NCBI GenBank assembly: GCA_017542695.1
Contig: JAFXWT010000224.1
Span: forward strand, 1 to 12,133
Reading direction: 5' to 3'
DNA from: Clostridia bacterium
GTDB lineage: Bacteria > Bacillota_A > Clostridia > Oscillospirales > CAG-272
Length of the DNA stretch: 12,133 bases
Position 1 is the first letter of the stretch. Each line of letters starts with the position of its first letter. Made by a program: the position numbers and the translations under genes. The notes below the pieces were generated by a model that worked only from the letters and a program-made list of their open reading frames with translations, was not told the origin of the DNA and made no database searches. This document shows positions 9,667-11,719 of this stretch, piece by piece.

Positions 9667-9695
9667 TTGACATAATGACAAAAATATAATACAAT
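9667..9695 (+). promoter_or_regulatory. Strong promoter of the DUF1292 gene
   Basis: Perfect -35 TTGACA (9667-9672), 17-base spacer, -10 TACAAT (9690-9695). Two further TATAAT hexamers (9685-9690 and 9695-9700) surround it at non-optimal spacing. It starts ten bases after the pgsA stop and may also feed the downstream RNA. Confidence 0.8.
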
Positions 9696-9731: not shown

Positions 9732-10022
9732 GTGGACGGCGAACTTAATGAATCAAACAGCATCATCCTGACCGACGAAGACGGCAAGGAAGTCGAATTT
9801 GAATTTGTCGACAGTTTTGATTTCGAAGAAAACACATACTACGTTCTCATTCCGACGGAAGACAACAAAGACGAGGAATACGTGATTCTTAGACTCGAAA
9901 AAGACGAAAACGGCGACGATATCCTCTCCACCATTGACGACGACGAAGAATTCGATCGCGTTGCGGATTATTTTGAGGACGAATACCTTTCCGAGATAGA
10001 TTATGACGCGGACGCGGAATAA
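9732..10022 (+). CDS. DUF1292 family protein
   Basis: A 96-residue, very acidic protein of the DUF1292 family, a small cytosolic Firmicutes family without known function. It shows the family's order of elements: I-I-L-T-D-E-D-G-K-E-V-E-F-E, a Y-Y-V-L-I-P segment, E-Y-V-I-L-R-L-E-K-D-E-N-G-D-D and a D-D-E-E-F-D tail. About one third of the residues are D or E. It uses GTG as start at 9732, with AAAGG (9716-9720) eleven bases upstream; no better start is seen. In many Firmicutes such genes sit near ruvX or alaS; here it stands alone behind a strong promoter and before a structured RNA candidate with a terminator. Confidence 0.87.
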   Translation: MDGELNESNSIILTDEDGKEVEFEFVDSFDFEENTYYVLIPTEDNKDEEYVILRLEKDENGDDILSTIDDDEEFDRVADYFEDEYLSEIDYDADAE

Positions 10023-10050
10023 TAACAGGGAAGGGTGCATAGAATATTAA

Positions 10051-10270
10051 CGGATGGAGACATCCTCCTGCGACTTTAGTGATGTGCCGCTAATTAAACC
10101 TACACTCAACACTTGGAGTTCGGGAAACGGACAGGGAATGCAGACCTCCCGACAAAGCCCTGCTTACGTCACGGCTTTGCTCGGACGTTGGGAGCACAAA
10201 TGCCGTTCGATGAACACCACCCTTGCTTATGGCAGGGTCTTAATTCCGGCACACACGGAGGAGCGGGGTA
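10051..10270 (+). ncRNA. Structured non-coding RNA candidate
   Basis: No credible protein lies here, but the strand folds extensively. Visible helices: GGATG-GAGA-CATCC with a GNRA-type loop (10052-10065); an outer closing helix CTCCT/AGGAG (10065-10069/10259-10263); TGTGCCG/CGGCACA (10083-10089/10247-10253), continued by AATTAA/TTAATT (10092-10097/10240-10245); inside these, ACTC/GAGT (10103-10119), TCGGGA/TCCCGA, CAAAGCC/GGCTTTG (10153-10159/10173-10179) and ACCCT/AGGGT (10219-10223/10234-10238). ACGTC in the loop of the CAAAGCC hairpin (10166-10170) can pair with GACGT downstream (10184-10188), an H-type pseudoknot. The candidate ends just before a strong terminator. The multi-branched fold argues against 6S RNA; size and taxon could fit the raiA motif RNA, which I cannot confirm from memory. 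It could also be a long 3' UTR of the DUF1292 gene. Confidence 0.6.
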
Positions 10271-10280
10271 ACTTTGAATA

Positions 10281-10324
10281 AAAAAGACCGCTTTCGGCTT
10301 TTTGCCCAAAGCGGTCTTTTTTTA
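10281..10324 (+). terminator. Strong Rho-independent terminator after the RNA candidate
   Basis: A 14-bp stem AAAAAGACCGCTTT (10281-10294) / AAAGCGGTCTTTTT (10308-10321). After one C-C mismatch comes an inner GGC/GCC stem with loop TTTTT. A T-run continues to 10323. It can work in both directions. Confidence 0.92.
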
Positions 10325-10368
10325 TTTTGTTCGCCATTGTGTCAAGCGATGCGTTCACTTTGGCATAT

Positions 10369-10394: not shown

Positions 10395-10424
10395 AAAACA
10401 GAGTTTCCGAAGAAACTCTGTTTT
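10395..10424 (-). terminator. Terminator of the PTT-repeat lipoprotein gene
   Basis: A 13-bp stem AAAACAGAGTTTC (10395-10407) / GAAACTCTGTTTT (10412-10424). Read on the minus strand the loop is TTCG, a very stable tetraloop, followed by a long T-run. It lies 15 bases after the stop codon, and can also work on the plus strand. Confidence 0.92.
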
Positions 10425-10439: not shown

Positions 10440-11639
10440 TTATGCGTTCTCAGCTTCTTTTTCGATGTTGCTCTTGTAAGCGTCGAGCTGGTCGAGAGAA
10501 GAACCGAATACGATGTAGTCAACTTCTACATATGTACCCTGTTTAGCATTTGCCCGAGAGTCGCAGTTCGGGTTGCCGCTATCGCCGTAGTCAGCTGCGC
10601 CGAGGAGCCAGAAGTAGAGGCCGCCTGCTTCAGCAGCTGCTGCGCAGTAGTTGTTCGCACCGATGAGACCGAGGTTTCTCGGATCCTTAGCTGCTGCAAC
10701 GAACTGAGCGAATGTAGCTGTGTTGCACCACGATTCCTGACCAACCTTTGAGCCGTCAGCAAGTGTTACCTGGCTGGAGCCCCAACCGAAACGGTTAGAA
10801 GCAAGAGCGTTCGTGAAAGCAAGGTCATATGTGTATGTAGCATACTTATCTGTAGCTGTGCATGTCTTGGAACCAACAGAACCCTGGAGGTAGAGGTTCG
10901 AGCAACGGAGCGTCGTGAAGAAGCCGGGGCTGTTCGATGCGGACCACCAGACACCGATCATGTTGTTCGATGTGTTGTTGATGAGGCGAACCTTCATGTA
11001 CTGATGACGGCCTACCCAGCTCTTACCAACGTTAGCCGTTGTGTAAGGATACTTGGACCATGTGCCCCAACCCGGGAAGAAGCCTTCATCTTCGAATTCG
11101 TAGTCATATGTAATGAGCGATTCGAACATAAGAGCGTAAGCTGTGTTCGGTGTTTCACCTTCTACGTAGTCAGCCATTACCCAAATCTTCCAAGAATCTT
11201 CTTTGTACTCGATGTAGAGGTAAGCCGAGTTGTACGTAAGACCGTCAACAAGGTACTCGTGAGCGGAAAGGTTGTTCTGAACCGCATACGAGTCTGTACC
11301 GAAGTCAAAACGTGCGTAAAGCGGAAGCGTTGTGCCTGCTGACATAGTTGTTTCCGATGCAGTTGTTACGTCCGTTGTGGGCTCTGCCGTTGTGGGCTCA
11401 GCCGTTGTCGGCTCTGCCGTTGTGGGTTCTGCCGTTGTCGGTTCTGCCGTTGTGGGCTCAGCCGTTGTCGGAGCAGCCGTTGTCGGTGCAGCCGTTGTGG
11501 GCGCAGCCGTGGTCGGTGCAGCCGTTGTGGGCTCTGTTGTAGGTTCGCTCGTGGAATCCGGTTTTTCTTCGCAGCTAACGAGAGCGAATACAGTGAAGAG
11601 CATTACAACAGCAATTATGAGTGACCAAAATCTCTTCAT
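10440..11639 (-). CDS. Surface lipoprotein with Pro-Thr-Thr repeat linker and unknown C-terminal domain
   Basis: A 399-residue protein. Residues 1-23 form a lipoprotein signal peptide (M-K-R-F-W-S-L-I-I) ending in lipobox L20-V21-S22-C23. A linker of five-residue repeats follows: PTTAA four times (37-56), PTTAE six times (57-86), then PTTDV; such Pro/Thr linkers usually span the cell wall and may be glycosylated. The C-terminal 300 residues are rich in aromatic residues, G and N, with beta-sandwich character and five cysteines, ending near Y-V-E-V-D-Y-I-V-F-G-S-S. A carbohydrate-binding role is a guess. The frame begins 14 codons earlier, but ATG 11639 has AAAAGGAGA (complement of 11647-11655) and the signal peptide. 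Codon choice (GCT/GCA, ACA, GGT, AAG) differs from the neighbouring genes, as expected for very high expression or foreign origin. Confidence 0.86.
   Translation of the reverse strand: MKRFWSLIIAVVMLFTVFALVSCEEKPDSTSEPTTEPTTAAPTTAAPTTAAPTTAAPTTAEPTTAEPTTAEPTTAEPTTAEPTTAEPTTDVTTASETTMSAGTTLPLYARFDFGTDSYAVQNNLSAHEYLVDGLTYNSAYLYIEYKEDSWKIWVMADYVEGETPNTAYALMFESLITYDYEFEDEGFFPGWGTWSKYPYTTANVGKSWVGRHQYMKVRLINNTSNNMIGVWWSASNSPGFFTTLRCSNLYLQGSVGSKTCTATDKYATYTYDLAFTNALASNRFGWGSSQVTLADGSKVGQESWCNTATFAQFVAAAKDPRNLGLIGANNYCAAAAEAGGLYFWLLGAADYGDSGNPNCDSRANAKQGTYVEVDYIVFGSSLDQLDAYKSNIEKEAENA
11367..11531 (-). repeat. 15-bp tandem repeat array coding the PTT linker
   Basis: Eleven in-frame 15-bp units encode PTTAA x4, PTTAE x6 and PTTDV. 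Units differ at a few third positions and at the GCA/GAG-type codon that switches A to E. Such an array can change copy number by slippage in whole units without breaking the frame. Confidence 0.9.
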
Positions 11640-11719
11640 AAGAAAATCTCCTTTTAGATAAAGAATTTTTTTACCGTACAAGATATCGTCTGAAAAATAC
11701 CCCGCACTGCTTTATTGTT

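What the first reader, a model, noticed from the sequence alone, without database searches (positions are those of the whole stretch)
10051..10270. Structured RNA candidate, about 220 nt, between a DUF1292 gene and a strong terminator
Seen directly: nested closing helices (10065-10069/10259-10263, 10083-10089/10247-10253, 10092-10097/10240-10245), at least three inner hairpins, a GNRA-type tetraloop hairpin at the 5' end and a possible H-type pseudoknot (10166-10170 with 10184-10188), followed at once by a 14-bp terminator. That is much more helix than expected for a 3' UTR. Inference: a stand-alone ncRNA. The raiA motif RNA is one known class of about this size in Firmicutes, but I could not match conserved positions from memory; 6S RNA fits poorly because the fold is multi-branched. 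If it matches no family, it would be new.
Basis: partly seen in the sequence, partly recalled or inferred. Interest (0 to 1): 0.75.

Follow-up and report, generated by a model that had tools for sequence, protein, structure and literature searches.

The report
6S RNA behind a DUF1292 gene
The structured RNA is a diverged 6S RNA, the RNA that bacteria use to hold back their RNA polymerase, and in this group of Clostridia it appears to be made as the tail of a messenger RNA for a tiny, very acidic protein rather than from a gene of its own.

Summary
It is not a new class. It is a diverged 6S RNA that Rfam's model scores below its cut-off (23.2 bits against 46.4) but aligns over its full length. 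A model built from relatives (R1) matches 175 of 196 genomes of the family; in all 96 genomes listed for both R1 and Rfam's 6S model the place is the same. Covariation is strong: 35 of 49 pairs.

The new part is the address. In 76 of 76 loci of the close set and 59 of 63 further order loci the RNA lies directly behind a DUF1292 gene, same strand. In 35 of 142 such loci the stop codon is at most 14 nt before the closing stem. A sigma-A-like promoter stands before DUF1292 in 116 of 142 loci but before the 6S RNA in only 14 (1 of the 35 tight ones). I infer that this 6S RNA is released from the 3' end of a DUF1292 mRNA. No expression data were available, so transcription and processing are inferred. 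A working partnership of DUF1292 and 6S RNA is possible but untested.

The parts
9667..9695 (+). Sigma-A-like promoter TTGACA-17-TACAAT of the DUF1292-6S unit (inferred)
   Evidence: Sequence; score 15.9, 0 of 100 shuffles as good; the cruder scan finds it too but expects 1.3 such sites by chance in that stretch
9732..10022 (+). DUF1292 gene (96 aa, very acidic, GTG start)
   Evidence: ORF, PF06949 E 2.4e-17
10040..10045 (+). TAGAAT, possible weak -10 box directly before the 6S RNA
   Evidence: p 0.14 as a -10 alone, 0.17 as a full promoter: not significant
10052..10065 (+). 5' hairpin with GAGA loop, outside the conserved core
   Evidence: Sequence; not in L001-L003
10062..10273 (+). 6S RNA
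   Evidence: RF00013 model 1-187 of 187, 23.2 bits; R1 10058-10277, 191.6 bits, window is one of R1's nine seed sequences
10067..10071 (+). Closing stem, 5' strand (CCUGC), pairs with 10263-10267
   Evidence: 230 of 230 cells paired in 46 sequences
10263..10267 (+). Closing stem, 3' strand
10083..10089 (+). Helix next to the central bubble, 5' strand, pairs with 10247-10253
   Evidence: 85% of cells paired, 92 double-change cells
10090..10103 (+). Predicted pRNA template: start opposite C10103, product 5'-GUAGGUUUAAUUAG
   Evidence: RF00013 alignments; CCNAC in 74 of 76, 62 of 63 and 25 of 27 loci; pRNA itself not tested
10114..10219 (+). Apical arm of the 6S RNA with conserved AUGCAGACCUCCC and UUGGGAGCACAAA strands
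10221..10237 (+). 3'-central-bubble hairpin
10281..10321 (+). Intrinsic terminator

Best explanation
The RNA is the 6S RNA of this Clostridia lineage. By homology it binds sigma-A RNA polymerase as a mimic of an open promoter and is let go when the polymerase copies a short product RNA from it, here predicted to start opposite C10103 (mechanism inferred, not shown). In this group it is not a free-standing gene: a strong sigma-A-like promoter (9667-9695) is placed to make one DUF1292-6S transcript that ends at the terminator 10281-10321, and ribonucleases then free the 6S RNA from the 3' end (inferred). In loci with more room, such as this window (44 nt between stop codon and closing stem), a second, weak promoter may add to it.
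For: 6S identity (about 0.97): full-length RF00013 alignment; L081 over the cut-off and L084, L003, L001, L086 just below it, all sharing the window RNA's motifs; 96 of 96 genomes listed for both models have the same place; covariation in 35 of 49 pairs (alignment fitted to R1) and in a separate MAFFT alignment; pRNA start position conserved. Transcription unit (about 0.8): DUF1292 directly upstream in 76 of 76 and 59 of 63 loci and in 52 of 52 genomes checked by an independent PF06949 search; promoter before DUF1292 in 116 of 142, before 6S in 14 of 142, tight loci 33 against 1 of 35; score >= 10 in 121 of 142 against 48 of 131 other ORFs; terminator-like sites between the two in 2 of 68, after the 6S in 83 of 138.
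Against: The window's own RF00013 score is half the cut-off, and L002 has no RF00013 match at E <= 0.5. 12 of 142 loci score >= 10 for a 6S-proximal promoter, and in the gap class 35-100 nt 11 of 58 (full) and 12 of 58 (-10 alone) reach p <= 0.05, so some lineages probably use one. 3 of 35 tight loci have a promoter-like site inside the DUF1292 frame at p <= 0.05. 26 of 142 loci show no significant promoter before DUF1292. L170, L188, L204 and L171 of the order lack an adjacent DUF1292. 55 of 138 loci showed no terminator by my simple pattern. Only sigma-A-type promoters were scanned. No RNA data.
Confidence: 0.8

Rival explanations
1. It is a 6S RNA with its own promoter throughout; DUF1292 is only a stable upstream neighbour, as rarA is in lactic acid bacteria.
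For: Upstream neighbours of 6S are conserved at family level in lactic acid bacteria, with a promoter in front of 6S (PMC8414754, passages). Clear promoter-like sites before 6S exist in some loci, e.g. L197, L198, L213. The window has TAGAAT at 10040-10045.
Against: 1 of 35 tight loci has such a site at p <= 0.05 and 0 of 35 a -10 alone, while 33 of 35 have one before DUF1292; frame-internal sites 3 of 35.
Confidence: 0.17
2. A new class of structured RNA, or a DUF1292 mRNA element, unrelated to 6S RNA.
For: No Rfam match at the gathering threshold; constant linkage to DUF1292 in the close set.
Against: RF00013 and R1 point to the same place in 96 of 96 genomes, 48 of 196 over Rfam's cut-off; more distant class members keep the RNA without DUF1292 upstream (20 of 27 loci, two of them with short upstream sequence).
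Confidence: 0.02
3. raiA motif RNA.
For: Similar size and host phylum only.
Against: Not among the matches with E <= 10 in 9990-10340.
Confidence: 0.005

Closest known systems
6S / SsrS RNA (Rfam RF00013)
   Same: Full-length alignment, closing stem, central bubble, apical arm, conserved pRNA start position
   Different: Sequence diverged so far that the window and most of its family fall under Rfam's cut-off: 48 of 196 genomes over it
B. subtilis 6S-1 RNA
   Same: 3'-central-bubble hairpin, possible bubble-collapse helix at the corresponding position, G-initiated pRNA (passages of PMC8876501 and PMC12005410)
   Different: Predicted pRNA is GUAGGUUUAAUUAG, not GUUCGGUCAAAACUA; its first five letters are those quoted for Aquifex. 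Gene linked to DUF1292
6S RNA of lactic acid bacteria (rarA upstream)
   Same: A protein gene conserved directly upstream (PMC8414754, passages)
   Different: There a promoter precedes the 6S RNA; here the strong promoter precedes the upstream gene and the gap is often 6-14 nt
3'-UTR-derived small RNAs
   Same: RNA encoded as the 3' end of a protein mRNA (inferred here)
   Different: As I recall, the described ones mostly act by pairing with mRNAs; a 6S RNA made this way was not seen in the listings

Membership tests
6S RNA (RF00013) | Homology to accepted 6S RNAs over the full length | tested here: met
   Model 1-187 of 187 aligned; the window alone scores 23.2 bits, under the 46.4 cut-off, but its R1 relatives coincide with RF00013 matches in 96 of 96 genomes listed for both, 48 of 196 genomes over the cut-off
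6S RNA (RF00013) | Rod with closing stem, central bubble and apical arm, supported by compensatory changes | tested here: met
   35 of 49 pairs changed on both sides in 76 sequences; helices checked on a separate alignment
6S RNA (RF00013) | Conserved pRNA start in the 5' side of the central bubble | tested here: met
   Position conserved in sequence only: C10103 falls on the E. coli column after CCGA (U44 as start is recalled); CCNAC in 74 of 76, 62 of 63, 25 of 27 loci, 4.7% in shuffles
6S RNA (RF00013) | Binds sigma-A/sigma-70 RNA polymerase and templates pRNA | not testable with these tools
   No biochemical data
6S RNA (RF00013) | Present across the lineage, usually once per genome | tested here: met
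   175 of 196 family genomes; two matches only in G150 among the rows shown
Free-standing 6S gene with its own promoter (usual arrangement, not defining) | Sigma-A promoter directly before the RNA | tested here: not met
   14 of 142 loci at p <= 0.05, 1 of 35 tight loci; window p 0.17
3'-UTR-derived RNA | Shared transcript with the upstream gene and a processed 5' end | tested here: inconclusive
   Promoter, gap and terminator layout fit; no RNA ends known
raiA motif RNA | Match to its Rfam model | tested here: not met
   None with E <= 10
tmRNA | ARAGORN match | tested here: not met
   0 genes in the window

The most novel reading that the evidence does not exclude
DUF1292 and 6S RNA are two products of one polymerase-control unit. 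The extremely acidic DUF1292 protein acts on RNA polymerase or on the 6S-polymerase complex, and ribosomes that stop 6-14 nt before the closing stem keep the 6S part unfolded while translation is brisk, so that free 6S RNA appears as growth slows.
Probability: 0.13. Interest if true: 0.85.

Novelty: new variant of a known kind. Interest (0 to 1): 0.5.

Why it matters
6S RNA is a global regulator of transcription, yet Rfam's model accepts it in only 48 of 196 genomes of this family where a lineage model finds it in 175. If the arrangement holds, a housekeeping polymerase regulator is made from the tail of a protein mRNA, which ties its supply to a small acidic protein of unknown function. DUF1292 stands beside it in the close set and most of the order, and in part of two further groups. 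That gives DUF1292 a direct, testable link to transcription control.

Tried and rejected
raiA, tmRNA and the other Rfam families: no match that covers the element apart from 6S. The Rfam row with the most bits, GmglnB1_5p_UTR, covers only the terminator. RimO-linked loci as a source of homologues: 3 of 80 carry the RNA (many of these contigs are short), so the rimO-pgsA neighbourhood is local while DUF1292 is the general neighbour. DUF1292 function: AlphaFold model pLDDT 75.7, pTM 0.59; 548 PDB matches with E <= 10, none with E <= 0.001; best sequence match in the PDB E 0.5: no hint. Literature: 'DUF1292' occurs in 6 papers of the library (listing only); none holds it together with '6S RNA'. 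A 2014 survey of 6S RNA in bacteria that I recalled by its DOI is not held (one search shows only papers that cite it), so an earlier report outside this library is possible.

Selections and omissions. The close set of 76 loci is the window, 70 of the 175 family matches (the 30 best, then 40 picked down the list) and five genomes whose family I do not know. The order set is 63 of the 108 matches, chosen the same way; the class set is 27 of the 74 matches (best ones). One search left out loci that repeat earlier places, and also L162 (G049) by oversight; its DUF1292 is adjacent. Alignment A4 used 46 of the 76 sequences. The promoter scan used 142 of 166 loci, those with DUF1292 within 500 nt, and picked start codons by a simple Shine-Dalgarno rule. 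L171, with DUF1292 1354 nt away, is counted as not adjacent. Two of the 20 class loci without DUF1292 have short upstream sequence (177 and 921 nt).

Full report
What is there. The element lies between the DUF1292 gene (9732-10022; PF06949, E 2.4e-17) and an intrinsic terminator (10281-10321). 10040-10280 folds to -81.2 kcal/mol, z -3.41, and 10051-10270 has z -3.57. No Rfam family reaches its cut-off in the window. In the permissive scan of 9990-10340, 6S RNA (RF00013) is the one listed family whose match covers the whole element: 10062-10273, model 1-187 of 187, 23.2 bits, E 0.0071, cut-off 46.4.

Relatives. A RimO search gave 80 loci. Three of them (L001, L002, L003) carry the RNA, aligned. 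RF00013 searched in 15 genomes matched 7, 3 over the cut-off; by coordinates, the matches in the genomes of L001 and L003 are the homologues of the window's RNA, while the genome of L002 gave none. Nine sequences (A2; consensus fold with 24 of 49 pairs changed on both sides) made model R1.

A 6S RNA per genome. R1 matches 175 of 196 genomes of the family of L001's genome, one match each except G150 with two. RF00013 matches 112 of the same 196, 48 over its cut-off. In the 96 genomes printed in both lists, the place is the same in 96. R1 also matches 108 of 117 genomes of the order and 74 of 148 of the class. The window RNA is therefore the 6S RNA of this lineage, most of whose members fall under Rfam's cut-off.

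Structure. On 76 sequences 91.9% of cells pair (76.0% after shuffling, at most 47.0% when partners are slid), 35 of 49 pairs have changes on both sides and the covariation score is 0.424 (0.148 shuffled) (this alignment was fitted to R1). Helix 10083-10089/10247-10253 has 92 double-change cells; 10092-10097/10240-10245 is 69% paired with 26; the pseudoknot is 78% paired with 2 and stays unproven. The hairpin 10221-10237 sits where B. subtilis 6S-1 has its 3'-central-bubble hairpin, and 10092-10097/10240-10245 resembles the collapse helix described there (PMC8876501, passages).

pRNA template. In the RF00013 alignments C10103 falls on the column after CCGA of E. coli 6S, which I recall as the pRNA start U44. 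CCNAC is present there in 74 of 76 close, 62 of 63 order and 25 of 27 class loci, against 4.7% of shuffles. The predicted pRNA is 5'-GUAGGUUUAAUUAG. B. subtilis 6S-1 pRNA (GUUCGG...) also starts with G, and the Aquifex one starts GUAGG (PMC12005410, passages).

The address. In 76 of 76 loci of the close set (window, 70 of the 175 family matches, five genomes) a DUF1292 frame ends directly upstream on the same strand, 6 to 308 nt before the closing stem. In the order set it is 59 of 63 within 378 nt, in the class set 7 of 27. One small further order shows it at 5 of 5 6S places, another at 5 of 9. An independent PF06949 search found matches in 56 of 59 family genomes, a single one in 50 of them. 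Of the 56, 52 have a listed 6S place and 52 of 52 are adjacent. The three genomes without DUF1292 (G026, G032, G043) and two with only weak or partial ones (G041, G072) are also without an R1 match; incomplete genomes may explain this.

Transcription. Among 142 DUF1292-6S loci, a sigma-A-like promoter before DUF1292 reaches p <= 0.05 (100 shuffles each) in 116 and before the 6S RNA in 14. In the 35 loci with a gap of at most 14 nt it is 33 against 1, and a -10 box alone before 6S in 0; over all 142 the -10 alone reaches it in 18. With score >= 10: 121 of 142 before DUF1292, 12 of 142 before 6S, 48 of 131 before other ORFs of the same loci; 111 of the 121 use a 17-nt spacer. Sites inside the DUF1292 frame reach p <= 0.05 in 3 of 35 tight loci. 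Terminator-like sites lie between stop codon and 6S in 2 of 68 loci with a gap of 40 or more, and after the 6S in 83 of 138 (shuffles: 22 of 690). In the window the promoter is TTGACA-17-TACAAT at 9667-9695; the cruder scan expects 1.3 such sites by chance in 851 bases. The 6S-proximal TAGAAT has p 0.14. The simplest reading is one transcript, DUF1292 then 6S, with 6S released by processing (inferred), helped by local promoters in some lineages.

What is not known. In 143 6S-linked copies DUF1292 has a median length of 98 aa with 37% D/E and 3% K/R; the fold model is moderate and has no convincing match. That it works together with 6S RNA is speculation.

Known or new. The RNA belongs to a known kind; expressed 6S RNA in Clostridia is on record for C. 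acetobutylicum (PMC3879012, passages). [quoted passage not shown] PMC8414754, passages). A DUF1292-6S unit was not found in the library searched (listings), which lacks most subscription papers.

Noticed in passing
10440-11681 (-): Lipoprotein-like ORF of 413 aa with a run of PTTA/EPTT repeats after the signal region; no Pfam match.
   Followed up: no
10395-10424: A second terminator-like hairpin that works on both strands in pattern, between the 6S terminator and the convergent lipoprotein gene.
   Followed up: no
9980-10022 and the matching place in many relatives: DUF1292 copies beside 6S often end in EIDYD just outside the Pfam domain; DYD lies in the last 22 residues of 66 of 143. It may be protein function or a signal in the RNA.
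   Followed up: partly
G150 and G433: Two R1 matches in one genome, possibly a second 6S RNA as in B. subtilis.
   Followed up: no
10147-10200: The apical arm carries very conserved strands (AUGCAGACCUCCC, UUGGGAGCACAAA) and a semi-conserved UUAUGUCACG loop, stronger than the Rfam consensus suggests; role unknown.
   Followed up: partly
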